Below, piece by piece: positions 11,074 through 30,128 of a stretch of DNA of 46,166 nucleotides. Where the stretch lies: the IMG/VR virus record IMGVR_UViG_3300045741_000533, positions 1 through 46,166 of that record. The stretch is one strand, 5' to 3'. The position numbers and the translations under genes were made by a program. The stretch is from a virus. Every line of letters starts with the position of its first letter. Position 1 is the first letter of the stretch. Under the pieces are notes generated by a model that was given only the letters and a program-made list of their open reading frames with translations, searched no databases and was not told the origin of the DNA.

Positions 11074-11081
11074 GCCTCAGT

Positions 11082-11154
11082 GCGCCCGTAGTTCAGTCGG
11101 ATAGAATAACAGCGTCGAATCTGTTGGTCGGAGGTTCGATTCCTCCCGGGCGCA
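11082..11154 (+). tRNA. tRNA-like gene with an eight-base anticodon loop
   Basis: A cloverleaf can be drawn: acceptor GCGCCCG/CGGGCGC, D stem GTTC/GAAT, anticodon stem AACAG/CTGTT, T arm GGAGG-TTCGATT-CCTCC, discriminator A, and no encoded CCA (ACCC follows). The body resembles bacterial tRNA-Arg. The anticodon loop is CGTCGAAT, eight rather than seven bases, and the base that normally separates D and anticodon stems is missing. If T at 11115 is U33, the anticodon is CGA. It may be a degenerate tRNA, a frameshift-suppressor-like tRNA, or an inactive relic. It is the only gene in a 600-bp gap and is opposite to its neighbours. Confidence 0.6.
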
Positions 11155-11334
11155 CCCTTTTCTCTTCTCCCCAGCCTTGCCGCTGTGTCAAGCGAAGCCA
11201 TTGTAAATGGCTATTAGCATTGAGTGTTACCGGTATACCTTACGATCAAAAGCGCTTATTTATTCCGATGTTATGGCCCATGTTTGGGTCCGCGCCCGAA
11301 CGCCCGTTGACATACGTCATGACGGCTGTCGAGG

Positions 11335-11356
11335 CGACCGGACGCGCGTCCGGTCG
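11335..11356 (-). terminator. Palindromic hairpin after terminase
   Basis: A perfect 22-bp inverted repeat (centre GACGC-GCGTC, arms CGACCGG/CCGGTCG) begins 17 bases after the terminase stop. It could fold into a nine-bp stem with a GCGC loop. There is no run of U after it, so it is a weak intrinsic terminator at best; a protein-binding site is the alternative. Confidence 0.45.
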
Positions 11357-15455: not shown

Positions 15456-16538
15456 CTATCCCTCCGCCCCAGGTTCGCGAGCCGGCTTCACCGTGTACTT
15501 GTCGATCACCGCCTTGGCCTTGGCGATGAAGGCCTCGCGGAGCTGCGGCGTGTTCTTGCCCCGCGCCGATCCGACCTCGTTGATCCAGATCGTCTTGGCC
15601 TTGCTGTCGTCGCCCACGACGAAGGCCAGCGACGCCCGTAGATCCTCGAGCTCCTCAGCGAAGTCGGAAGCCTGCGGCCCATCGTCGGCCGGTGGAGGCG
15701 GCTCCTGGGCTGGCTTCGTGGCCTCTCCAGCGACAGCTTGAGCAGCCGCGAGGATCGTTGCCTTCTGCGCGGTCACCGGAGCCTGGACAGCGGCCTCGGG
15801 CGCAACGTCGATCGTGATCTCCTCGGCATGTTGCTGGCTCACGCCCGCGTCGGCGCGTTCGTCGAGCATCGCCGCGCGCTGCATTTCGATGCTCACCGGC
15901 AGGTACTTGAAGAGCCGACGGATCGCGGTCTTTTTCGCCATCTCCTCGGGGTGGTCGACCCAAGGCCCGAAGTCCTTGGCCACGCGGTTCAGCTCGCGCG
16001 CGGTGACCACCTCGAATTGGACCCCGCCGTCCCGAAGCTTTGCCACCGCGTACGCGTGGGTGATGGACTCAGCACCGTCGGCGGGCTCCTCCTCCGCGGG
16101 CTTGTGCAACAGCGTCTCGTTCAGCCCGTAGCTGAAGCGGAAGAAGTCGCCCTTGCGGACGACCCGGGCGCTGATGCTGACGATCTGGCCTGAGCGCCGA
16201 GCCAGGTCGATCATGCCGCGATAGCCGATGATCACCTGGGGTTCGGTCCGGTTCTCCTTGCGGTTCTTGTAGGGGAGGATCCAGACGTGTCCGAGGGCCC
16301 CGCCGGGCTCGAGCCCGAGCTGGGCGCACTGGATGATCGCGCCGAAGAGCGCCTTCGGGTCGCACTTGAGGAGGTCCGGCGTCTTCCGGAGCTCGGTCAG
16401 CGCGATCCGGGCCATGCGGTCGGCGGTGATGTGCCGCGGGAGGGCGGCGGCGATCTGGTCTTTGTGCTTCGACAGGAAGCCGAAGACGGACAGGCTCGCG
16501 CCGTCGGTGGGGGTGGTGTTGGCGATCTCTGCGCTCAT
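15456..16538 (-). CDS. recT: RecT-type single-strand annealing protein
   Basis: This 360-residue protein has the RecT core: SVFGFLSKHKDQIAAALPRHI, the LKCDPKALFGAIIQCAQLGLEPGG segment (residues about 57-80), PQVIIGYRGMIDLARRSG, and a conserved WVDHPEEMAKKTAIRRLFKYLP near 190-215. It anneals complementary strands after resection by the YqaJ-type nuclease just upstream, whose stop it overlaps. The last ~110 residues are Ala/Pro/Gln-rich with a helical end, longer than in many RecT proteins, perhaps for SSB or partner binding. Confidence 0.9.
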   Translation of the reverse strand: MSAEIANTTPTDGASLSVFGFLSKHKDQIAAALPRHITADRMARIALTELRKTPDLLKCDPKALFGAIIQCAQLGLEPGGALGHVWILPYKNRKENRTEPQVIIGYRGMIDLARRSGQIVSISARVVRKGDFFRFSYGLNETLLHKPAEEEPADGAESITHAYAVAKLRDGGVQFEVVTARELNRVAKDFGPWVDHPEEMAKKTAIRRLFKYLPVSIEMQRAAMLDERADAGVSQQHAEEITIDVAPEAAVQAPVTAQKATILAAAQAVAGEATKPAQEPPPPADDGPQASDFAEELEDLRASLAFVVGDDSKAKTIWINEVGSARGKNTPQLREAFIAKAKAVIDKYTVKPAREPGAEG

Positions 16539-17581
16539 GCTGCGTGCTCCTCTGCTTTATCGGTCGTGATCGCGACTCGGAGCGTTCGCCCCGGTTCGCC
16601 GCGGTGTTTTGAGACGATGTCCTTGGTGTTGACGCCGTGGAGACCCAGGAGACCCAGTGCCTCGTTGGCGATGGCCTTCCAGTCGGTCGAGCCCTCGCGC
16701 TTGCGCCATGTGGCCACGCCGATGGATGAGCTCTTCACGCCCTCCGCGTCGCCGATGGCCGCTTTGATGCGCGCTGCGATGGCCTCTTGCTCTTCGGCCG
16801 CGGCCTTGGCCTTGGCGCGCGCAGCTTCGTAGGCCTCGGTGAGGCGCTCCTCCTCCGGAGTCATGTCGCGGAGCGGAGCGCGTGGCGCCGGATGCCGCTG
16901 GGCCAGCCAGGCGTCAAGGAGCTTCGACGGCGCGGGTTGCACCGGCTCGCCGCCCACAATGTGCCGCGCCCACCAAGAGGCGCAGGCCTGGACGATCGCC
17001 GCCCCCACGGCGCGATCCCTGGTCACCCGGTAGACGCGCAGCTCCCCGCGCGCGAGGTACAGCGGCACAAGCGCCTCCACCGCGGCGCGCTGCTCCGTCT
17101 CGGCCACGTGATCCAGCGCCCCCTCGATCTCCGAGAAGAGCGCCGGGATCACCAGCACGGGCACCCAGGCCACTTCGCGATCGAGCGCTTCAAGCTGGAC
17201 CTGAACCTGAATCGCGTAGTCCGTCGGCAGGCCCTCCGGCTCTCCGGTCCAGTCGGCGGCGTAGGCGTGCTCGTTGGCCGTCTTGCATTCGACGATCGCG
17301 CCCTCCGGCGTCTCGAAGTCGAAGCTCACGCGCTGCCAGGCACGGCCTTTGGGCCGCTCGATCGGGGGCAGGCTCCGGAGCTCCAGCCCGCCTCCGAGCT
17401 TGGAGAAGAGCTCCGCCACTCGCGGCTCGAGCGCGAGCCCGCGGAACATCTCGGGCGAGCTGGGCCCGCGGAAGTCATCCAAGATGCGACGTGCGACGTC
17501 GAATGGGGTCTTGTACTTCGAGAGTCCGAGCACGGCTGCGGCGTCGGTAGAGCCAATGAGCCTTGGGTTGGGCGTGCTCAT
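16535..17581 (-). CDS. YqaJ-type viral exonuclease
   Basis: This 348-residue protein has a lambda-exonuclease-like fold: IGSTDAAAVLGLSKYKTPFDVAR (residues 9-30), GLALEPRVAELF with E52, SFDF with D88, and VECKTANEH (98-104) with the E-x-K, then YAIQVQVQLEAL. These match the YqaJ catalytic set. It resects double-stranded ends to give 3' overhangs for RecT. The C-terminal 120 residues include an Ala/Glu coiled coil. Start is an overlap (ATGA) with the preceding gene. Confidence 0.88.
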   Translation of the reverse strand: MSTPNPRLIGSTDAAAVLGLSKYKTPFDVARRILDDFRGPSSPEMFRGLALEPRVAELFSKLGGGLELRSLPPIERPKGRAWQRVSFDFETPEGAIVECKTANEHAYAADWTGEPEGLPTDYAIQVQVQLEALDREVAWVPVLVIPALFSEIEGALDHVAETEQRAAVEALVPLYLARGELRVYRVTRDRAVGAAIVQACASWWARHIVGGEPVQPAPSKLLDAWLAQRHPAPRAPLRDMTPEEERLTEAYEAARAKAKAAAEEQEAIAARIKAAIGDAEGVKSSSIGVATWRKREGSTDWKAIANEALGLLGLHGVNTKDIVSKHRGEPGRTLRVAITTDKAEEHAA

Positions 17582-17838
17582 GACTTCCTCCACGTTCCGC
17601 GCGGCGTGGTGGTCCCACTCGGCTGCTTCCCGACCCGGTTTTGGCGCGCCTGCTTGACCGCCCGAAGCACCAGCTTGGCGTGCTTCTCCGCTTCGTCCGG
17701 GCGGTAGATGACCGTGATCGAGCCCAGCGGATCGCTGAAGATCATCGCGACGTCGACGCCGTCCGAGAGCCCGACGTCGACGCGCGGTGTGATGTTGCCT
17801 GAGGATCTCGCGTACTTCTTGATGGTCTTCGTGCTCAT
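17578..17838 (-). CDS. Hypothetical 86-residue protein
   Basis: Begins with a basic segment (MSTKTIKKYARSSGN), then beta strands (DVAMIFSDPLGSITVIYRPDEA) and a basic helix (EKHAKLVLRAVKQARQNRVGKQ). Start at 17838 overlaps the previous stop (ATGA) after a GAGCGAGG ribosome site. It may bind nucleic acid; the family is unknown. Confidence 0.55.
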   Translation of the reverse strand: MSTKTIKKYARSSGNITPRVDVGLSDGVDVAMIFSDPLGSITVIYRPDEAEKHAKLVLRAVKQARQNRVGKQPSGTTTPRGTWRKS

Positions 17839-18497
17839 GCCTCGCTCCAGATCTGGTGGAGGCGCTCGACGAGCGCGCCCTCGTCGGTGGCCACCGTCGT
17901 GGTCCGCGTCCGGGCGCTGGTGCCCCACTGCCCAAGCGCGTCCTCGGCGATGCGCTCGCCCACCACCGCGCCGTCGATGCGGACGCTCTCGTCCTGGCCG
18001 ATGATGTACGGCACCAGCTCGAGCTCGGCGGTGGGCCAGGGCTCCCAGCGCACGAGGCGGTAGCCGGCCTCGAAGCACTCCGGGCACGGCAGGTCGTCCT
18101 GCGGGTCGCCCGTCTCGTTGAAGCCGCCGCACCCGGAGCACCGCTCGCAGATCTCCGGCCGCTGCGTCGGCGCCGGCATGGTCTCGGCGCCCGCGAAGAG
18201 GAGGTCCAGCTCCTCGGCGCACCGAAGGGTGCCGTCCCCGAGCCAGGAGTCCACGACCTCGGCCGCTTCGCCCCAGAGGTGATACAGCGCGGTCCGCGGC
18301 TCCTCGACGGCCCAGGCGATGACGGGCCGCGACAGGCGCTCGTAGACCGCGCGAGCCAAGTCGCTGTCCTCTCCCCCGCACACGTCGGCGATCGCCTCGT
18401 GCGGGTAGGTCTCCGGGATGCGGAGCTCGGCGCGGACAGCCGCCAGAGCTGCGATGACCGGGTCCGTGGTGGTGGTCGTGTCGATGGCGGTGCTCAT
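17835..18497 (-). CDS. Zinc-ribbon-containing hypothetical protein
   Basis: This 220-residue acidic protein carries a double-Cys cluster ICERCSGCGGFNETGDPQ...PCPECFEAGY (residues about 116-145), like a DnaJ-type zinc ribbon with CxxCxxC and CxxC. The rest is helical. No enzyme motif seen. As the second gene of the leftward operon it is probably early. Confidence 0.58.
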   Translation of the reverse strand: MSTAIDTTTTTDPVIAALAAVRAELRIPETYPHEAIADVCGGEDSDLARAVYERLSRPVIAWAVEEPRTALYHLWGEAAEVVDSWLGDGTLRCAEELDLLFAGAETMPAPTQRPEICERCSGCGGFNETGDPQDDLPCPECFEAGYRLVRWEPWPTAELELVPYIIGQDESVRIDGAVVGERIAEDALGQWGTSARTRTTTVATDEGALVERLHQIWSEA

Positions 18498-18808
18498 TCG
18501 CGTGACTCCTCTCGGCCCTCGGTGAGCACGCTGGCGCGGGCTCGGCGCTCGGCGGCGAAGATGACCTGCATGCTGGACAGCGCGAGCCCGAGGGCCGAGC
18601 CCGCAGCCGGGTGCCTGAGCGTGTGCTCAATCTCCAGCGCCTCCAGCGCATTCATGGCGTGGACGATGGCCCACATGGCCCGGCCGTCCTCGCGTCGGCT
18701 CCACGCCCCTGTGCCCCGGTCGTAGAGGTCCTTCAGGTGCTGCTCCATCTCCTCGGCGGTCCCGCACGGCCGCTCCATCACCATCGCTTTGTCGATCGCG
18801 CTGCTCAT
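18494..18808 (-). CDS. First gene of the leftward operon, hypothetical
   Basis: This 104-residue protein is the first gene after the leftward promoter. ATG at 18808 is preferred to the one at 18823 because GGAGGG lies seven bases before it, while 18823 is almost on the predicted transcription start. It is helical (GTAEEMEQHLKDLYDRGTGAWSRREDGRAMWAIVHAMNAL). Family unknown; an immediate-early regulator is possible but not shown. Confidence 0.6.
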   Translation of the reverse strand: MSSAIDKAMVMERPCGTAEEMEQHLKDLYDRGTGAWSRREDGRAMWAIVHAMNALEALEIEHTLRHPAAGSALGLALSSMQVIFAAERRARASVLTEGREESRE

Positions 18809-18830
18809 TTCCACGCCCTCCATTGGTCCA

Positions 18831-18858
18831 ATATTATGGCCAATGCATTGGCCGTCAA
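18831..18858 (-). promoter_or_regulatory. Leftward early promoter
   Basis: On the minus strand TTGACG (18858-18853) and TAATAT (18836-18831) are separated by 16 bases, and the spacer is operator 1. This is a good sigma-70-like promoter and would start transcription about 18825, just before the ribosome site of the 18808 gene. It probably drives the recombination and packaging operon. Confidence 0.65.
18838..18853. promoter_or_regulatory. Operator 1: 16-bp perfect palindrome
   Basis: GGCCAATGCATTGGCC at 18838-18853 is a perfect inverted repeat lying between the leftward -10 and -35, overlapping the -35 by one base. A repressor bound here would block leftward transcription directly. The same CAATGCATTG core occurs at 18883-18892. 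Confidence 0.75.
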
Positions 18859-18877
18859 GTCCCCGGTGGTCGATTTA

Positions 18878-18906
18878 TTGGACAATGCATTGGGCGGGTG
18901 TACAGT
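18878..18906 (+). promoter_or_regulatory. Rightward promoter of the RHH regulator
   Basis: TTGGAC (18878-18883) and TACAGT (18901-18906) are 17 bases apart. The spacer begins with the second palindrome, so the regulator likely controls its own gene. Transcription would start at or within a base or two of the ATG at 18913, giving a leaderless mRNA as in the lambda cI maintenance transcript. Confidence 0.55.
18883..18892. promoter_or_regulatory. Operator 2: CAATGCATTG
   Basis: This 10-bp palindrome repeats the core of operator 1, 45 bases away (about four to five helical turns), in the rightward promoter's spacer. A third, degenerate site CATTGGTCCAAT lies at 18821-18832 over the leftward start. 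The arrangement looks like a two- or three-site switch. Confidence 0.65.
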
Positions 18907-18912
18907 GTGACC

Positions 18913-19137
18913 ATGGCCCCACCGAAGAAGGTCACCCCGAAACAGGAAGTGATTTGGAAGATCCTGTTCACCGACGCCGAGGCCGCCGAGATTCAGGCCG
19001 TGATCGACCGTGCCCATGCGGCTGGGCTCACGCCGTCCCGGTCCGCATGGTGCGTCGCGGCCCTCCTCGCCGCTGCCCGCGCCGATGAGCTCGCAGCCAA
19101 GCCGCCGAAGCCAGCTCGGACCAAGCGGAAGAGCTAG
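18913..19137 (+). CDS. Ribbon-helix-helix-like regulator (candidate repressor)
   Basis: This 74-residue basic protein reads as a beta strand (VIWKILFTDAEAAEIQAV) followed by two helices (VIDRAHAAGLTPSRSAWCVAALLAAARA) and a basic tail (PKPARTKRKS), which fits an RHH DNA-binding fold. It is one of only two plus-strand protein genes and is divergent from the leftward operon across palindromic operators. The start at 18913 was chosen because an upstream frame runs through both operators and lacks a ribosome site. It is a strong candidate for the main repressor. No classical CI or Cro was found. Confidence 0.65.
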   Translation: MAPPKKVTPKQEVIWKILFTDAEAAEIQAVIDRAHAAGLTPSRSAWCVAALLAAARADELAAKPPKPARTKRKS

Positions 19138-19142
19138 GCCGC

Positions 19143-19625
19143 TCATGTCACACCCCGATTGAGCAGCGGCGCATCAGCCCGCAGGCGCTCGCGCGAGGCC
19201 TCGGCGTAGGCCGGATTGAGCTCCACCCCGAGGTATCGGCGCCCAAGTCGCAGCGCGACCAGACCCGTCGTCGCGGTCCCGGAGAAGGGGTCGATCACCA
19301 GGTCCCCGGGCGCAGACCCCGCCGCGATGCAGGTTTCGATCAGGTCCGGGGGGAAAGTAGCGAAGTGGTGCTCATTCGTCGGCTTGGTGGTGACGCTCCA
19401 GACCGTCCGCCTGTTCCGCCGGCCGTTGCCGACCCAGTTCTCGGTACCGGCGCCCACGAGCGCCGACACGTAGTCATCGATCGATGACTCAAGACCGATC
19501 TGGTCGTCGGCGCCGTAGTCGCGCAGACCCCAGTACGGAGGGCTGGTGACGCACGTGCGAGCTGTTGCGTCGGCGACCGCGCCGATGGCCTCGCGGGCGT
19601 CTCCCGTGATGATCGTGGCGCTCAT
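19143..19625 (-). CDS. Shortened N6/N4 DNA methyltransferase
   Basis: This 160-residue protein keeps the catalytic TSPPYWGLRDYG (residues 27-38) and the AdoMet-binding DPFSGTATTG (112-121) with the following ELNP. Family members are usually 250 residues or more; here the segment between the SPPYW motif and the GRRNRRTVWSV stretch is only about 35 residues, so most of the target-recognition region is missing. It reads as a clean in-frame internal deletion rather than a frameshift. Activity is uncertain. It overlaps the methyltransferase gene upstream by four bases. Confidence 0.78.
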   Translation of the reverse strand: MSATIITGDAREAIGAVADATARTCVTSPPYWGLRDYGADDQIGLESSIDDYVSALVGAGTENWVGNGRRNRRTVWSVTTKPTNEHHFATFPPDLIETCIAAGSAPGDLVIDPFSGTATTGLVALRLGRRYLGVELNPAYAEASRERLRADAPLLNRGVT

Positions 19626-20245
19626 CGGTCGAGCTCCTTGATCAGCTCCAGCGGGTCCATCTCGACGCCCTGAGCGTCCAGCACGGCGCGGGCCTCAAGG
19701 AGCCCCTCCACCAAGCTGGGCGCGGGCCGACACAGCGCGGGCAACTCCAGCGCGTGCTCCCAGATGACGATCGCCATCGGCTCGGCGTGCGACGTGACCT
19801 TTCCCTCAAAGCCCATCGGCGGAACGAACGTCGCCCGCCCGCGGGGGAAGATCACCCGTGCGGCGCGGCGCGTGATGAAGCGGTCCCACCAAGCGCGATC
19901 CGTCCGCGCGGGGAAGAAGCCGACGCACTGGACGATCCTGCGCTGATCGAGCTGCTCAACCGCACGCGACACCATGTGCCCGATCTCGCCGAATGGCGGC
20001 TGAAGCCAGGCCACCTCAGCCGACCCGACCTCGCCCCATGGGTACTCGAGGCACGAGCGCTCGGCCGTGAAGTAGCGCGGACACTTCGCGTTGCTGTCGC
20101 TGGCGCACGCGTCGACAGTGAATCGGCCGCCGTAGGCGTAGCGTCGCTCGATCTCGCGGAAGAGGGGCACCGGCGTCTCCCAGTCGGGCAGCCGGTCACC
20201 GCTGAGCGCGCCCCATGGCATTGCTTGTTGCTTGGCGGCAGTCAT
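19622..20245 (-). CDS. Dam-like phage N6-adenine methyltransferase, altered motif IV
   Basis: This 207-residue protein resembles the phage N6-adenine methyltransferase family: DWETPVPLFREIERRY near residue 21, FTVDACASDSNAKCPRYFTAERS (42-64), and WLQPPFGEIG (80-89). The last is the motif IV place, where D/N-PPY/W is expected; here it is QPPF, so catalysis may be altered or lost. Such enzymes protect phage DNA from restriction. It ends in a four-base overlap with the second methyltransferase. Confidence 0.75.
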   Translation of the reverse strand: MTAAKQQAMPWGALSGDRLPDWETPVPLFREIERRYAYGGRFTVDACASDSNAKCPRYFTAERSCLEYPWGEVGSAEVAWLQPPFGEIGHMVSRAVEQLDQRRIVQCVGFFPARTDRAWWDRFITRRAARVIFPRGRATFVPPMGFEGKVTSHAEPMAIVIWEHALELPALCRPAPSLVEGLLEARAVLDAQGVEMDPLELIKELDR

Positions 20246-20862: not shown

Positions 20863-22031
20863 GGCTCGGTGTCCGCCTCTATCTCGCGGAGCACGTAGCC
20901 CGCGGGTTGCGTCTTCTTCGCCGCCCAGCTCGCGACCGCGCGGTGGCCCTTCTGCTCCTTGGAGGACATGACGACCCTCGGAGTCCCTGCCCGCGCCGTC
21001 TCGGCGAAGCGGGTGACCTGCGAGCCGCTACGCATGATGAGGTCCAGGCCGAGGTACTTCGTCTGGCGGTCGTTCTCGCCGAGGTTGTGCGGCGTCATGT
21101 GGCAGCCATCGATCGCGAGGCAGAGCGTCTCGACGTCGGTGCCCTCGCGCAGGCGCGCCTCGATGAGCCTCCACTCGGACGACTTCGGGTCCGGGTCCCT
21201 GAAGCTCCTCGGGTGGTGCTGGCGGTAGCGGTCGAAGACGCGACGGACGAGCTCCGCCGTCTTCGGCTGGGTCGGTTCTGGTGGGATAAGGACCAGCGGC
21301 TCCGGTGAGCGATCGGCCGGCGTCTGCGCCGGAGGGGCCCCGCTTGCGGGGTCTGTGTCCGCCAGGCGGACAGATCTCTCTTCCGGATCTGAGGAAGAGG
21401 AAGAGGAAGAGGAAGAGGAAGAGGAAGAGGAAGAGGAAGAGGAAGAGGGGGGTGGCCCTTCTTTTTTTTGGGGGGGGGGCTTAGGTCGAGCCTTAGGTCG
21501 GGCCTTAGGGTCGACCTTAGGTCGGTCGCTTTTGATCAATGATTCCGCGTAGAGTCTGTCCTCGGCGCGCGCCGGCATGGTGCGAACCAACTCGCGCAGG
21601 AAGTCCTCGCCGCGCTCCGCCAGGTACGCCGCGAAGGCCCTCCACGCGCGCCATTTGAGCTCGCACTCGGGGACCTCGAGCCACTCCCGGGCGCCCATCG
21701 CGACCACGTTGGAGGGCGAGCGGGGCTCGTTCCGGCCGGGCGCGACCGCTTTGGGCAGCCAGATCACCCGGGCGATCGGATCGACCTCGACCATCCCCTG
21801 GGCCTCGATCTCCGCCAGGCACCGGCGGACATCCTCGACCGGCCAGCCCAGGTCCTCGGAGAGCAGGCCGAGGCCAAGCCCCATGAGGCCCGGGATCGAT
21901 CGGTCGTGGCCGCAGGTGATCAGGTGCACCCAGAGCGTCTGGGCGTTGGGCTGCGGGGCCGAGAGCGCGCGGAAGCGGGCGTCCGCTCGCATCGCGCAGT
22001 CGACCGGCCTATAGCGGCGGACCTTGCTCAC
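20856..22031 (-). CDS. Replication initiator-like protein with polyserine linker
   Basis: This 391-residue protein has an N-terminal winged-helix-type region (YRPVDCAMRADARFRALS, LWVHLITCGHDRSIPGLMGLGLGLLSEDLGWPVEDVRRCLAEIEAQGMVEVD), typical of phage initiator proteins. A linker of Lys/Pro/Arg and about 19 serines (residues 196-214) joins it to a C-terminal part (FDRYRQHHPRSFRDPDPKSSEWRLIEARLREG). The linker is encoded by iteron-like repeats, a C10/A8 run and a GAGGAA microsatellite. As in lambda O, the origin may lie inside this gene. Confidence 0.65.
   Translation of the reverse strand: MSKVRRYRPVDCAMRADARFRALSAPQPNAQTLWVHLITCGHDRSIPGLMGLGLGLLSEDLGWPVEDVRRCLAEIEAQGMVEVDPIARVIWLPKAVAPGRNEPRSPSNVVAMGAREWLEVPECELKWRAWRAFAAYLAERGEDFLRELVRTMPARAEDRLYAESLIKSDRPKVDPKARPKARPKPPPQKKEGPPPSSSSSSSSSSSSSSSSSSSDPEERSVRLADTDPASGAPPAQTPADRSPEPLVLIPPEPTQPKTAELVRRVFDRYRQHHPRSFRDPDPKSSEWRLIEARLREGTDVETLCLAIDGCHMTPHNLGENDRQTKYLGLDLIMRSGSQVTRFAETARAGTPRVVMSSKEQKGHRAVASWAAKKTQPAGYVLREIEADTEPC
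21391..21447. repeat. GAGGAA hexanucleotide microsatellite
   Basis: About 9.5 copies of GAGGAA (plus strand), encoding the serine tract of the initiator. Changes in copy number keep the frame, so linker length could vary without loss of the protein. The tract is a strict polypurine run and could unwind or form unusual structures beside the iterons. Confidence 0.9.
21462..21479. repeat. T8-G10 homopolymer pair in the initiator gene
   Basis: T8 (21462-21469) is followed by G10 (21470-21479); the gene reads C10 then A8, coding PPPQKK. Runs this long are prone to slippage, so the frame could switch. The frame as assembled is intact. Confidence 0.75.
21480..21524 (-). repeat. Four iteron-like repeats (candidate replication origin)
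   Basis: Plus-strand CTTAGGTCG or CCTTAGGTCG repeats at 21480, 21491, 21503 (one extra base) and 21515, spaced 11-12 bases apart, that is about one helical turn. On the minus strand they read CGACCTAAGG. They sit inside the initiator gene next to purine-rich and homopolymer tracts, as in lambda, where O binds iterons inside its own gene. Confidence 0.6.
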
Positions 22032-22327
22032 CCCGCCACCCCCGGCTCCCTGTAGCCGAGCATCCGCATGCCCTTCAGGGTGATGGAGGCGGGGTTATTG
22101 GCTGGCGCCGAGACCCATCCCAAGACGCCCATGCGCTGCAGCTGCCAGCGCACAGCGGTCTCGCCCAGGTTCACTCGATCGGAGATCTCGCGCGCGGTCG
22201 CCTGACCGGCGAGGAGCACGTCCAGGATTCGGCGCCGGCTCTCGGTGAGGGTCTCGGACCTCGCGCGGGCCCACCGCACGACGATCTTCGGGTCATAACC
22301 AAGCTCTATGAGCTGCTGCTGAATCAC
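22028..22327 (-). CDS. Winged helix-turn-helix protein
   Basis: This 99-residue protein has an HTH pattern: RRRILDVLLAGQATAREISDRVNLGETAVRWQLQRMGVLGWV, the usual winged-helix order with recognition helix ETAVRWQLQRM. GTG at 22327 is chosen because GGGGGA lies eight bases before it; a GTG at 22369 has no ribosome site. It lies directly upstream of the initiator and may regulate replication genes. Confidence 0.65.
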   Translation of the reverse strand: MIQQQLIELGYDPKIVVRWARARSETLTESRRRILDVLLAGQATAREISDRVNLGETAVRWQLQRMGVLGWVSAPANNPASITLKGMRMLGYREPGVAG

Positions 22328-22384
22328 GGCAGGGTCCCCCTTTGGGAGGGCCGCGGCAGCCGAAGCCACCGCGGCCCGGATGCT

Positions 22385-23673: not shown

Positions 23674-24074
23674 TCCTCCTCCGTTAGTTGTGTGATCTCG
23701 ACGAGCGTGCACGGTTGCTCGCCCATCGCTGCGTGCCTCTTGTGGATGTGCAGGTCTGAGACCTTGCCGTCGTCGAAGTGGTCCTTCAGGCCGTCCAAAA
23801 TTTGCTTCGCGTAGTTGTCCGCATCGCCGCGCGTCGCCTTACGGACCCGTCCGGACGCGCGCGCGGATCTGAGGCGCGGGAAGATCGCCGTGATGGTGAC
23901 CTCGAGCGGACCATCTAGTTTTCGCGGCACACCCGCAGCGAGCGCACAGATGGCGACGGCGTGCTCGGCGCGAGCTGTCTTGCGTTGGGTGAAGTGGTGA
24001 CCGCGCCCCCGACCGCGGCCAGCACGCTGCCAAGGGACAGGCTTTCCAGGGACGACGAACGCCCAAGCCATCAC
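23670..24074 (-). CDS. rusA: RusA-like Holliday junction resolvase
   Basis: This 134-residue protein shows the RusA core: FVVPGKPVPWQRAG at the start, and GDADNYAKQILDGLKDHFDDGKVSDLHI (residues 83-110), with the catalytic D84, D86 and D101/D102 region. It cuts four-way DNA junctions formed in replication and recombination, and fits a phage that also has RecT. Strongly overlapped with its neighbours. Confidence 0.9.
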   Translation of the reverse strand: MMAWAFVVPGKPVPWQRAGRGRGRGHHFTQRKTARAEHAVAICALAAGVPRKLDGPLEVTITAIFPRLRSARASGRVRKATRGDADNYAKQILDGLKDHFDDGKVSDLHIHKRHAAMGEQPCTLVEITQLTEEE

Positions 24075-25078
24075 CGCACCTCCGGGAAGGCGTCATGCGT
24101 TCGGCCGTCGAGGAGCCGGCCGGCGGCCTTCTTGCCGACGCGCCTCGCTGCGACTACGCGTTGCCCGTGGAAGCCGTGCCCACCAGCGAGGTTCAGCCAG
24201 CGATCATTCTTGCCCAATGCGACGTTGGTGTTCTCGTAGATCGTCTTGAACTCGCCCCACTGTTTGAAGAAGTACGGCACATTGGCGGAGGCGCATTGAT
24301 CACGAAGCGATCGCGCCCAATCCGGGTGCATCGGCCGTGCGCCGAAACCACTCTCGCCGCCGACGATCACCCAGTCGATCTGGTGTGGCAGCTGCGTAGC
24401 GATGAGCGTTCCCGTCAGCGGGCTCGGCCGCATACCAAACCCACCCAGCGCGTCCAGCCACGGATCTCCGTCGATCGGCTTCGGCCATGGAGGTGACGGG
24501 AAGGCCGCCACCCTGGTGAGGTCGACGAGGCCGAGAAGCGGCTCACACGACAGGAAGCGCACCCGTGCGGGCACATCCAAGAGGTGCGGGATCCGCTCGT
24601 CCGCGCGGCGCTGGTCCTCGACCGTAGTGCCGAGCCAAACGTTCGGCGCCCACGTTGGACCGATGCTGTCCGCCCCGTTGAAGGCGTCGTACTGCGCTTG
24701 GTTCCACAGGCGGTCGGCGTTCTCGGGTCGTTTGGTGAGCAGGAGCCAGTCGAGGTGCTCGGTCGCGGCGATCAGCCCATGAAGCCGAGCCCGCAGCGGG
24801 GCCAACTCCGGCAGGTCCTCGAAGACGTCGGCCATCGACGCGCAGAAGACGCGGTGCCGCTCGCCGGCCGCCTGTGCTGCCGCGCTCCAGCGCCGCGGCT
24901 CGGACCACGTCTTCTCGCTCGCTGGAACCCGCGGCTGGCCAGGGCCCCACTTCGCAAGCCCGAACCGGGTAGCGATCGCCTCGGCGTAGCAGTGCTCGCA
25001 GCCCGGCGAGACGCGCTGGCACCCTCGCCACGGGTTGAATGTGTGGTGCGTCCACTCGATCTTGCTGTCGGCGCCCAT
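24071..25078 (-). CDS. DUF5131/Gp37-Gp68 radical-SAM-like protein
   Basis: This 335-residue protein has the Gp37/Gp68 signature: IEWTHHTFNPWRGCQRVSPGCEHCYAEAIA with C20, C27, C30, then FCASMADVFED, LDWLLLTKRPENADRLW, VWLGTTVEDQRRADERIPHLL, FLSCEPLLGLVDL and DWVIVGGESGFGARPMHPDWARSLRDQC. The Cys triad suggests an iron-sulfur cluster and radical chemistry. The substrate is unknown. The start overlaps the previous stop (TGATG). Confidence 0.85.
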   Translation of the reverse strand: MGADSKIEWTHHTFNPWRGCQRVSPGCEHCYAEAIATRFGLAKWGPGQPRVPASEKTWSEPRRWSAAAQAAGERHRVFCASMADVFEDLPELAPLRARLHGLIAATEHLDWLLLTKRPENADRLWNQAQYDAFNGADSIGPTWAPNVWLGTTVEDQRRADERIPHLLDVPARVRFLSCEPLLGLVDLTRVAAFPSPPWPKPIDGDPWLDALGGFGMRPSPLTGTLIATQLPHQIDWVIVGGESGFGARPMHPDWARSLRDQCASANVPYFFKQWGEFKTIYENTNVALGKNDRWLNLAGGHGFHGQRVVAARRVGKKAAGRLLDGRTHDAFPEVR

Positions 25079-26309: not shown

Positions 26310-27494
26310 CTAGAGCAGCGAGAGCTGCCGGGCGCCGACGAGGGCGCGGTGAAGGGCCATCACCGCTTCGCAGCGGGCGGCCCAGGAAAAGCGGGAGTAG
26401 CCTGCGACCACCGTCTGGGGGTCGTGGGAGATGGCCGAGACGACCGCGGTGGGCGCGCCAGCTTCCTGGGCGAGCGTCATCCCGGCGGCCTTCAGGTCGT
26501 AGGGCCAGCGATGCGGCACGAGGCCGAGGGCGCGCTCGTGACGGCGCCAGCGGTCGCTCTGGCGCTTCTTCTCGAGGGCCCGGATTGAGCCGTCCGCCCC
26601 TCTGCGGCAGAGGACCAGGTCCTCTGGGCCGGGGCTTCGTCCGGCGACCTCTGCCCAGCCGCCATCACGGAGCTCGGTCAGGAGGGCGCCCAGGATCGGC
26701 GAGACGGGAGCCTCCCTCGAGATCGAGGTCTTGGTGGGACGGACAACCCCCTCCGACAGGGCCCGGGAAACGGTGATCCTTGCGAGTGGGCGGGCGGACC
26801 AATCGATGTCGCCCCAGCGGAGCTCCATCGCTTCCCCGGGGCGCATCCAGGCGAGCGCGATCAGCCCATAGTATGCGCGGTCGACCAGCTCCACGGCGGG
26901 CGACCGGAGAAGGGCGGCGATCTCCTCGGCCGCGAATACGTGGTCCGCGCGCCGGAAGCCCGGCCCATCACGGTTGGCCGGCAGCTCGGAGGGCTCTAGG
27001 CGGCAAGGGCTTCGGTCGATCAGCCCGGCCCGCTCGGCGCCGCGGAAGAAGGCTCGGAGGAGGTTGTAGACGTTCCTCACCGACCTGGGCGCGAGCTTCA
27101 ACTGGGCGGGGCCGTCGGCCCTCGAGGCAAGGTCGGAGACCAGACGGCGGACGTGCTCCAGCCGGATGGAGGTGACCGGCTGTTGGCCGAAGCGAGGCTC
27201 GACGTGCTTTCGCCACAGCGAAGCGTAGCGGGCGGGCACCCGAAGGCCGCGGGTCTTCCGCTCCTCCAGCCACACCTCGAACCACGCACCAGCCGTCGGC
27301 CCAATCGGTGGATGAACCGGTCCGGCGACCGAAGGGGGGGCTGCGCTCGGACGGCGCGACCGGAACTCGTCGGCCCTGGCGGCTGGCAAACGTTCGCCGT
27401 TGGCGATAGCTTGCTCACGGGAGGGCCTGCCAACCTGGTGGTGGCCCCGGTCTTCAAAAGAGGAGGGGTTCGGCGTCTCGGATCGTCTCTTCAT
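26310..27494 (-). CDS. Second tyrosine recombinase, altered active site
   Basis: This 394-residue protein has a SAM-like N-domain (WFEVWLEERKTRGLRVPARYASLWRKHVEPRFG) and a catalytic domain with R218 (WMRPGEAMELRWGDID), K255 (RPTKTS), H357 (ISHDPQ) and Y366 (GYSRF). The HxxR box, however, reads YDLK (332-335) where H and R are expected. It may be inactive or unusually tuned. The first 65 residues are disordered. It is not a copy of the integrase at 28080. Confidence 0.75.
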   Translation of the reverse strand: MKRRSETPNPSSFEDRGHHQVGRPSREQAIANGERLPAARADEFRSRRPSAAPPSVAGPVHPPIGPTAGAWFEVWLEERKTRGLRVPARYASLWRKHVEPRFGQQPVTSIRLEHVRRLVSDLASRADGPAQLKLAPRSVRNVYNLLRAFFRGAERAGLIDRSPCRLEPSELPANRDGPGFRRADHVFAAEEIAALLRSPAVELVDRAYYGLIALAWMRPGEAMELRWGDIDWSARPLARITVSRALSEGVVRPTKTSISREAPVSPILGALLTELRDGGWAEVAGRSPGPEDLVLCRRGADGSIRALEKKRQSDRWRRHERALGLVPHRWPYDLKAAGMTLAQEAGAPTAVVSAISHDPQTVVAGYSRFSWAARCEAVMALHRALVGARQLSLL

Positions 27495-27879: not shown

Positions 27880-28083
27880 TTACTTTTGTCCATTTCCGAA
27901 CGGTTGCGTAGGCTTGGCCGTATCGGCGCGCTTACGGCGAAGTTCTTCGAGGATCAGACGGAGCGCTTCCAGTTCGGCCTGCAGTTCAGCCGACGCGGGC
28001 GGGCGCGGCATCCACGCGTCCTCGCGCAAGAGGTCGACCGCGAACCAAACACCAGGCCAGCGCTTCTTTCGGCGGGCCCTCAT
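27880..28083 (-). CDS. Small basic protein after integrase
   Basis: This 67-residue protein starts at 28083 in an ATGA overlap with the integrase stop. It has MRARRKKRWPGVWFAVDLL, then ASAELQAELEALRLILEELRRKR, a leucine-rich helix that could dimerise. A directionality factor or a toxin-like partner of the integrase is possible, but no family is recognised. Confidence 0.5.
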   Translation of the reverse strand: MRARRKKRWPGVWFAVDLLREDAWMPRPPASAELQAELEALRLILEELRRKRADTAKPTQPFGNGQK

Positions 28084-29051
28084 CGCAGCACCTCGAACAC
28101 CGGCGCGATGCGCTCGATCTCGTCGCACCGCGCGGGCCAAGGCACCTCCGAGTAGAGCTCGATCATGTCGCTCGGCTTCGCGTGTGTGAAGAGCGCGACC
28201 ACGTCCTTGCGCGCACCGCGCCCGCGTAGGAGATCGATGAACGTCCGACGCATCGCGTGGATCGTGCGCGAATCGTCGAATCCCAGGCGCCTGAGGTCGC
28301 TAGTCAGCGTCGCGTTGCATGTGTCGTTGCGGAGCGCGCGCACCGCCGCCGCGGACGAAGCGCGCGACGGGAACACGAGATCCCCCGGCCCCGGATCGCG
28401 CCCCATCTCATCGGGCCAGCGGTCGGCCCAGCGCTCGAGAGCGCGCGACAGCGAGCTGAGGATCGGCACCTCCCGCGAGACGCGTGTCTTGGTCGCATCG
28501 AGTTTCAGCCGGCGCGTGCTCCACGCTTGCCCCACGATGAGCACGTCCAGCGGCTCTCGCTCGCCAATCGCGCCCCAGGTCAGCCCAGCCAGCTCCCCAA
28601 AGCGCAGCCCCGTCGCGAACGCGCACGCGTAGAAGAGACGGCGCCGAAACGCGATCGAAACGTCGGTGATCAGCGCGCGGACTTCCGCCTCCGTGTATCG
28701 CGCCCGTGCTCTCCAAAAGGGATCGGCGTCCACCGCCGGCGGGAGCTCGCGCGGCGTAAGGCGCGTGGTGTTCGCGGGCAGCACGTCGTCCGCCACCGCG
28801 GCGTTGATCACCGCCTGAAGGCCCCGGTACCAGCGCAGGACGGTCCGCGGCGCGTAGCGCCCCGAGGCCTGCACCGCCGAGACCCAGGCGCGCACATGCC
28901 GCCTCGAGATGCTCTCCAGCGGCTGCCCACCGAATGTCGGGAGCAGTGCATCCAAGAGGGCCCTGTCGTCGTCCACCGAGCGCAGGCCCTCCGCCGCCCG
29001 TCGAGCTGTCCACCTTGTCGCGTACTCTTGGAACGTCATGCCCCGGAGCAT
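28080..29051 (-). CDS. int: Tyrosine integrase
   Basis: This 323-residue protein has all catalytic residues of a tyrosine recombinase: R150 (ATGLRFGEL), K188 (ATKTR), H265xxR268 (HAMRRTF), H290 (FTHAKP) and Y300 (IELYSE). The N-terminal domain (TFQEYATRWTARRAAEGLR) is the core-binding SAM-like fold. It would integrate the phage into the host. Two starts are possible, 29051 and 29039; the ribosome-site hairpin at 29043-29057 favours the downstream one. Its likely attachment site was not found by eye. Confidence 0.88.
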   Translation of the reverse strand: MLRGMTFQEYATRWTARRAAEGLRSVDDDRALLDALLPTFGGQPLESISRRHVRAWVSAVQASGRYAPRTVLRWYRGLQAVINAAVADDVLPANTTRLTPRELPPAVDADPFWRARARYTEAEVRALITDVSIAFRRRLFYACAFATGLRFGELAGLTWGAIGEREPLDVLIVGQAWSTRRLKLDATKTRVSREVPILSSLSRALERWADRWPDEMGRDPGPGDLVFPSRASSAAAVRALRNDTCNATLTSDLRRLGFDDSRTIHAMRRTFIDLLRGRGARKDVVALFTHAKPSDMIELYSEVPWPARCDEIERIAPVFEVLR

Positions 29052-29079: not shown

Positions 29080-29159
29080 GTCTAAGCGCAGGTGATCCTT
29101 AGTAGATCAAAACTGAACCCCCGCGCAGCGTTGTGGTGACCCGCGCCGAGGGCTAGGTG

Positions 29160-30128
29160 ATGGGGATGCTGCACGCGCTGGCGGTGCTGACGTTGGTCAT
29201 CGGGGCGCCGCAGCCTGTCGACGGCTTCGAGGAGACACAGGCACGGATCGAAGCCGCGAAGACGAAGCCACAAGCCGAAGCTCCACCCGAAGCAAAGAAG
29301 GACATTCGAGAGCAGCTCCGCTCTGGCCAGGCGATCTGCAAGCACTGGCCGCTGACCGCTGAAGACCGCGCCTGCGCTGACCAAGTCCTGGCCCAGGACA
29401 TCTACGTGGCAATCCGCTCGGGGCGACAAGCCAGCACCCTTTGCGCCAGAGTCTTCGACGAACTTGGCTGGCCCAAGGCTTTCGACCGAAGGATGGTGCC
29501 TCTCAACGAAAACGCCGGGGATGGCCCGCGCTGCTCCGCCGACTGGGGCTCGCCTCAGAGTCCTGAGGACTCGACGCAGATTGGCTGCATGGTCACCCTC
29601 GCCACCCAGGACCTAATCAACTGGGCGGACAAGAAGCCTTCTAAGGCTGCAAAGATCGCCGCGGAGCTGCTTCGCGGCGCGCTCCCCGCCGACGTTGTGG
29701 AGGCCGACAGCTGGACGATCGCTGGGCTTCCGAAGGGACCTGTATCCGTCGGCCGCCTTCGAATCGAAATCGGAGACACCGTGGTCGCGCGGATCGAAGG
29801 TGACGAGAAGTCGGTCGGGGTCGGGATCGCATACATGGTCGAGCAGACGAACCCGAAGCCGCGGCCAATTCCGGACGGGGTTGTCTACCTGCTCGACCAT
29901 CGCCGCGTGCGTCACGCCCAAGATCGCCTGACTGGCCTCTTCCAGCGCTTCAGCGCAGGGGAGCACATCCTTGAACCGATCCAAGCGGGCGAGCGTCTAG
30001 AGCGAACCGTGGCGGTGAAGCTGCCGGTGGAAGTAGTCGGGCGGACCTTCGCGCTGGTGCTCAGCGATCACGAGAGCGGGGCCGTGGTCACCATCCCGGT
30101 GAGCCTGTCTCCGTTCTCCGAAGACTGA
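29160..30128 (+). CDS. Secreted or periplasmic moron protein
   Basis: This 322-residue protein starts MGMLHALAVLTLVIGAPQPVDG, a plausible signal peptide, followed by a soluble Glu/Ala/Lys-rich linker and a beta-rich body (GRLRIEIGDTVVARIEGDEKSVGVGIAYMV, RTVAVKLPVEVVGRTFALVLSDH). ATG at 29160 is preferred (GAGG eight bases upstream) over GTG at 29157. It is opposite to the flanking phage genes and followed by a strong hairpin, the layout of a moron that a prophage expresses on its own. No family recognised. Confidence 0.6.
   Translation: MGMLHALAVLTLVIGAPQPVDGFEETQARIEAAKTKPQAEAPPEAKKDIREQLRSGQAICKHWPLTAEDRACADQVLAQDIYVAIRSGRQASTLCARVFDELGWPKAFDRRMVPLNENAGDGPRCSADWGSPQSPEDSTQIGCMVTLATQDLINWADKKPSKAAKIAAELLRGALPADVVEADSWTIAGLPKGPVSVGRLRIEIGDTVVARIEGDEKSVGVGIAYMVEQTNPKPRPIPDGVVYLLDHRRVRHAQDRLTGLFQRFSAGEHILEPIQAGERLERTVAVKLPVEVVGRTFALVLSDHESGAVVTIPVSLSPFSED

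What the first reader, a model, noticed from the sequence alone, without database searches (positions are those of the whole stretch)
18821..19137. A compact genetic switch: RHH-like regulator with a palindrome in each divergent promoter
A 16-bp perfect palindrome lies in the spacer of the leftward promoter and its 10-bp core recurs in the spacer of the rightward promoter, which should start a leaderless mRNA at the regulator's ATG. No CI or Cro homologue is visible, so this may be the main lysogeny control.
Basis: partly seen in the sequence, partly recalled or inferred. Interest (0 to 1): 0.85.

Follow-up and report, generated by a model that had tools for sequence, protein, structure and literature searches.

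The report
Small self-regulating repressor switch in phage
A temperate bacterial virus carries one small gene facing against nearly all its others, and the two promoters between that gene and the early lytic genes share the same unusual palindromic DNA boxes; this looks like a miniature self-limiting on/off switch run by an unclassified 74-residue protein, although nothing here shows that the protein binds the boxes.

Summary
GGCCAATGCATTGGCC (18838-18853) fills the spacer of a leftward promoter (TTGACG-16-TAATAT). CAATGCATTG recurs at 18883-18892 in a rightward promoter (TTGGAC-17-TACAGT) whose predicted start is the ATG of a 74-codon gene, the one coding-like gene divergent from the early operon. 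Local shuffles never reproduce the repeated palindrome (0 of 20,000). The record is a temperate contractile-tailed phage; the leftward unit opens with two unknown genes, then a YqaJ-type nuclease and RecT. Best reading: the 74-residue protein binds the array, shuts the leftward early promoter and limits its own synthesis. The ribbon-helix-helix label is suggestive only (Pfam NikA-like E=0.17, below cut-off; the single-sequence model shows no strand). No relative was found in any collection searched. 'Main lysogeny control' is plausible but untested; a winged-helix protein (22028-22369) is a rival regulator, though no CI/Cro-type protein was recognised. Verdict: real and well built, a variant of a known kind of switch.

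The parts
18913..19137 (+). 74-aa regulator candidate (P0001), divergent from the early operon; RHH-like only by weak profile match
18838..18853 (.). operator B: perfect 16-bp palindrome GGCCAATGCATTGGCC filling the leftward promoter spacer
18877..18893 (.). operator C: ATTGGACAATGCATTGG with core CAATGCATTG 18883-18892, overlapping -35 and spacer of the rightward promoter
18831..18858 (-). leftward early promoter TTGACG-16-TAATAT
18878..18906 (+). rightward promoter TTGGAC-17-TACAGT; predicted start about 18913, leaderless
   Evidence: (listed as TGGACA-16-TACAGT)
18494..18808 (-). first gene of the leftward operon (104 aa, no family; GGAGG before ATG 18808), in the position of cro
17835..18497 (-). 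second leftward gene, 220 aa; weak zinc-ribbon-like matches below cut-off
16535..17833 (-). YqaJ-type recombination nuclease of the leftward operon (start uncertain)
15456..16538 (-). RecT single-strand annealing protein of the leftward operon
19143..19625 (-). DNA methyltransferase gene, convergent with the regulator (5-bp gap, no terminator-like site listed between)
22028..22369 (-). rival DNA-binding protein: winged-helix (HTH_24) in the replication operon

Best explanation
The 104 bp at 18809-18912 is a compact two-promoter switch of a temperate contractile-tailed phage. The 74-residue protein binds an array of CCAAT/ATTGG half-sites as a dimer or dimer of dimers. Sites A and B cover the -10/start and spacer of the leftward promoter, so bound protein excludes RNA polymerase and keeps the early genes (two unknowns, YqaJ nuclease, RecT, polymerase exonuclease) off. 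Site C, with less symmetric flanks, covers the -35 and spacer of the protein's own promoter and caps its synthesis (negative autoregulation). B and C are 42 bp apart, four helical turns, so they lie on one DNA face. Its mRNA is leaderless, as for lambda cI. When the protein is lost, the leftward promoter fires; leftward read-through from the convergent methylase/replication genes would also run antisense through the regulator gene. Shown: sites, promoters by consensus, gene orientation, rarity. Inferred: binding, repression, leaderless start, lysogeny role, antisense effect.
For: Half-site array confined to this region (6 of 38 in the record); repeated palindrome inside both promoters; four of the record's five promoter-like sites are here; the gene is coding-like, divergent from the early operon and has no SD, with ATG 7 bp after the -10; two tyrosine integrases show a temperate phage; no CI/Cro-type protein found; best RHH-profile score of any small ORF in the window.
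Against: No homologue in any collection, so neither sites nor protein can be tested by conservation. DNA-binding fold not established. Another DNA-binding protein exists in the record. No operator copies near integrase or replication genes. Promoters are consensus matches only; the host is unknown.
Confidence: 0.58

Rival explanations
1. The array is a binding site for a different protein (the phage winged-helix protein at 22028-22369, or a host regulator), and the 74-aa gene is only its target, for example an antirepressor or accessory protein.
For: HTH_24 match above cut-off; the 74-aa protein has no confident DNA-binding family.
Against: The winged-helix gene sits beside a DnaD-like replication protein, is co-directional with the lytic genes, and has no such sites near it. 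Autoregulation by the divergent neighbour is the commonest arrangement (general knowledge).
Confidence: 0.25
2. The 74-aa protein does bind and autoregulate here but is a Cro- or Arc-like modulator of early transcription rather than the repressor that maintains lysogeny; the maintaining repressor is unrecognised. (This is a sub-case of the best explanation, differing only on the lysogeny role.)
For: Operators at only two promoters; very small protein with no signal-sensing domain; a dozen or more window proteins have no family, so a divergent repressor could hide; phage P22 Arc is an RHH protein of this sort (own knowledge).
Against: It is the only regulator candidate divergent from the early operon; no other divergent gene pair with promoter consensus was found.
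Confidence: 0.3
3. The repeat is a chance or non-regulatory feature such as a recombination or attachment site.
For: 13 of 100 whole-window shuffles contain some repeated 10-bp palindrome.
Against: Its position inside both promoters, 0 of 20,000 local shuffles, and the cluster of six half-sites.
Confidence: 0.05

Closest known systems
Phage lambda immunity switch (cI/cro, OR with PRM/PR)
   Same: Divergent promoters, repeated operators overlapping both, autoregulated small repressor, leaderless repressor mRNA (lambda cI is naturally leaderless: PMC4965119).
   Different: No CI- or Cro-type helix-turn-helix protein recognised; operators are CCAAT/ATTGG palindromes; no recognisable Cro partner; no sensing (S24) domain.
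SSV1 F55, ribbon-helix-helix lysogeny regulator of an archaeal virus
   Same: Very small regulator (55 aa) that binds multiple short sites in early promoters and in its own promoter and keeps lysogeny (PMC9608457); also an orphan unique to its virus.
   Different: Archaeal promoters; site ATAGATAGAGT is not a palindrome; RHH is assigned there, only suggested here; no sequence relation tested.
P22 Arc and Mnt (RHH repressors of the immI region)
   Same: Small phage repressors acting at closely spaced divergent promoters (own knowledge).
   Different: They control the antirepressor, not primary immunity; their operators differ (own knowledge); no Arc-type family was listed for P0001.
NikA/MobC-like RHH proteins (Pfam PF21983)
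   Same: Best, sub-threshold profile match, residues 10-51. A partly related phage (L218) encodes a NikA-like protein on the strand opposite its neighbours near its integrase.
   Different: Score 12.5 bits against a cut-off of 27; no mobilisation genes recognised here; the L218 protein has no BLAST similarity to P0001.

Membership tests
Ribbon-helix-helix (MetJ/Arc) superfamily | Profile match over a curated cut-off | tested here: not met
   PF21983 12.5 bits, E=0.17, cut-off 27; RHH_1 none; own profiles E about 0.6-0.8
Ribbon-helix-helix (MetJ/Arc) superfamily | One strand followed by two helices, intertwined dimer | tested here: inconclusive
   Single-sequence monomer model has helices 9-18, 21-36, 43-60, no strand, pLDDT 67; no PDB match; dimer not modelled
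Ribbon-helix-helix (MetJ/Arc) superfamily | Binds short repeated or palindromic operators | not testable with these tools
   Operator-like array present; binding needs experiment
Lambda-type divergent repressor switch | Divergent promoters with shared operators overlapping both | tested here: met
   Sequence arrangement only
Lambda-type divergent repressor switch | CI-like helix-turn-helix repressor | tested here: not met
   No HTH_3/S24 family in scanned window proteins
Lambda-type divergent repressor switch | Cro-like antagonist as first gene of the lytic operon | tested here: inconclusive
   104-aa first product has no family match
Lambda-type divergent repressor switch | Temperate phage with integrase | tested here: met
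   Two tyrosine-integrase genes
Lambda-type divergent repressor switch | Leaderless repressor mRNA | not testable with these tools
   ATG 7 bp after the -10 and no SD; needs 5'-end mapping

The most novel reading that the evidence does not exclude
A tailed bacteriophage whose whole lysogeny decision rests on a single 74-residue repressor of a new family (possibly ribbon-helix-helix), with a three-operator array and a leaderless self-limited transcript, and no CI/Cro pair.
Probability: 0.22. Interest if true: 0.65.

Novelty: new variant of a known kind. Interest (0 to 1): 0.42.

Why it matters
If right, it gives a minimal, easily rebuilt two-promoter switch with an orphan repressor and a defined operator, and an example of tailed-phage immunity without a recognisable CI/Cro pair, a gap in annotating repressors of environmental phages.

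Tried and rejected
Homologues of the protein: viral contigs, genome contigs, phages, plasmids, 20 records sharing the capsid protein, and all fetched loci; none. These searches need near-exact peptide words or BLAST-level similarity, and records very near the window may be left out, so absence is not proof. Pattern scan for two CAATGCATTG boxes in viral contigs: 5 hits; the three read (L002, L003, L004) are repeats or coincidences inside long reading frames, the other two were not read. Relatives by early genes: the YqaJ protein gave 3 weak loci, RecT and the 220-aa protein none in viral contigs. A RecT alignment found 80 prophage loci in diverse bacteria, none with this switch. The replication-region protein 24071-25078 gave 80 viral relatives, L218 sharing 5 of the tested genes, but without a repeated palindrome. 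A tandem NikA-like protein in L218 was tested as a distant relative and rejected by BLASTP. Small RHH-like ORFs in other loci have no comparable paired palindromes upstream. The winged-helix protein was folded but the model was of low confidence and not taken further.

Full report
What the record is. The window is a whole IMG/VR virus record of 46,166 bp classed as linear, 68% G+C. Family scans show a contractile-tailed temperate phage: terminase, portal, head protease, major head protein, tail sheath, tape measure, baseplate proteins, RecT and YqaJ, two tyrosine integrases at 26310-27494 and 28080-29051. Every protein gene given a family lies on the minus strand; the 74-codon gene 18913-19137 faces the other way. 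One further right-facing ORF (29157-30128) has a coding-like score but no family, and a tRNA at 11081-11157 is also on the plus strand.

Checking the observation. The leftward promoter is TTGACG-16-TAATAT and the rightward TTGGAC-17-TACAGT; each spacer or -35/spacer holds a copy of the palindrome. Of five sigma-70-like sites found in the entire record, four fall at 18808-18906, including both of these. A single 16-bp palindrome is not rare here (mean 2.03 per shuffled record), and a repeated 10-bp palindrome turns up somewhere in 13% of shuffled records, so the bare repeat would be weak evidence; its position is what counts: 0 of 20,000 shuffles of the intergenic 104 bp contain one. In 2.75 Mb of other phage and bacterial DNA such pairs were very rare.

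The boxes are parts of a larger array of CCAAT/ATTGG half-sites: ATTGGTCCAAT (18822-18832) over the leftward -10, CCAATGCATTGG (18840-18851) in its spacer, and ATTGGACAATGCATTGG (18877-18893) over the rightward -35 and spacer. Six of the record's 38 such pentamers lie in 72 bp; nowhere else do more than two share 75 bp. B and C centres are 42 bp apart, which is four turns of B-DNA. Nothing similar occurs at other promoters in the record, so the regulator would act directly only here.

The protein. The sequence of P0001 can be read as strand (12-19), helix (21-36), helix (43-60) of a ribbon-helix-helix protein, and the only Pfam family listed up to E=1 is the RHH family NikA-like, but at E=0.17 and far below the cut-off. 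Profiles built here from 22 NikA-like domains, and from these plus 30 RHH_1 domains, score it above all but 18 or 5 of 20,000 shuffles; the RHH_1 profile alone does not. At this score other, unrelated ORFs also appear. The single-sequence AlphaFold model has three helices and no strand and no PDB match. RHH is therefore a reasonable guess, about even odds, not a result.

Mechanism. By position and geometry, a protein on A and B would exclude polymerase from the leftward promoter, and on C from its own. The leftward operon holds two unknown genes, then the YqaJ nuclease and RecT and a polymerase exonuclease-like gene, typical early lytic functions. The regulator has no Shine-Dalgarno and its ATG is at the expected start point, as for lambda cI, which is naturally leaderless (PMC4965119). 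The perfect flanks of B against the imperfect ones of C suggest that the lytic promoter is shut first and self-limitation follows; this is inference. The regulator and the convergent methyltransferase gene are 5 bp apart with no terminator-like site listed between, so leftward read-through would be antisense to the regulator; also inference.

Is it the main lysogeny control? No CI- or Cro-type protein was recognised, but a winged-helix protein (22028-22369; HTH_24 E=7.5e-6) lies in the replication operon next to a DnaD-like protein, and a dozen or more proteins have no family. I give 0.58 that the 74-aa protein binds the array and represses both promoters, and about 0.3 that it is the main repressor.

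Relation to the known. The wiring is that of lambda-type switches; the closest functional analogue with a tiny regulator is the archaeal virus protein F55, which binds repeated sites in early promoters and in its own and maintains lysogeny (PMC9608457). P22 Arc and Mnt are RHH phage repressors (own knowledge). Full-text searches for RHH lysogeny repressors in tailed bacteriophages returned few papers; the two read on this point described a ParG-like partition protein (PMC6669507) and phiKZ/phiEL repressors said to resemble the RHH protein AlgZ (PMC3564109); the SP-beta MrpR paper (PMC10516654) was listed but not read. The library is partial.

Noticed in passing
window 11081-11157 +: A tRNA gene (Rfam 53.9 bits) that ARAGORN reads with a four-base anticodon tcga in an enlarged loop, in an A+T-rich 599-bp gap between terminase and portal genes; a possible frameshift-suppressor tRNA.
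   Followed up: no
window 26310-27494 and 28080-29051: Two different tyrosine-integrase genes side by side in the same direction; both match the same integrase locus of relative L218.
   Followed up: no
window 19143-20245: Two adjacent DNA methyltransferase genes (N6_N4_Mtase and Dam type) next to the switch; whether they methylate the operators is unknown.
   Followed up: no
L218 15269-15664 -: A 131-aa protein with two RHH-looking units in tandem (NikA-like match E=0.004 in the longer ORF), on the strand opposite its neighbours and close to an HTH_17 protein and the integrase of a partly related phage.
   Followed up: partly
window 29157-30128 +: A right-facing ORF with positive coding score (0.305) but no family match, in the 1.2-kb gap beyond the integrases.
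   Followed up: no
window 19472-19489 and 11337-11354: Two other perfect 18-bp palindromes (AGTCATCGATCGATGACT inside the methyltransferase gene; ACCGGACGCGCGTCCGGT just beyond the terminase stop, possibly a terminator).
   Followed up: no
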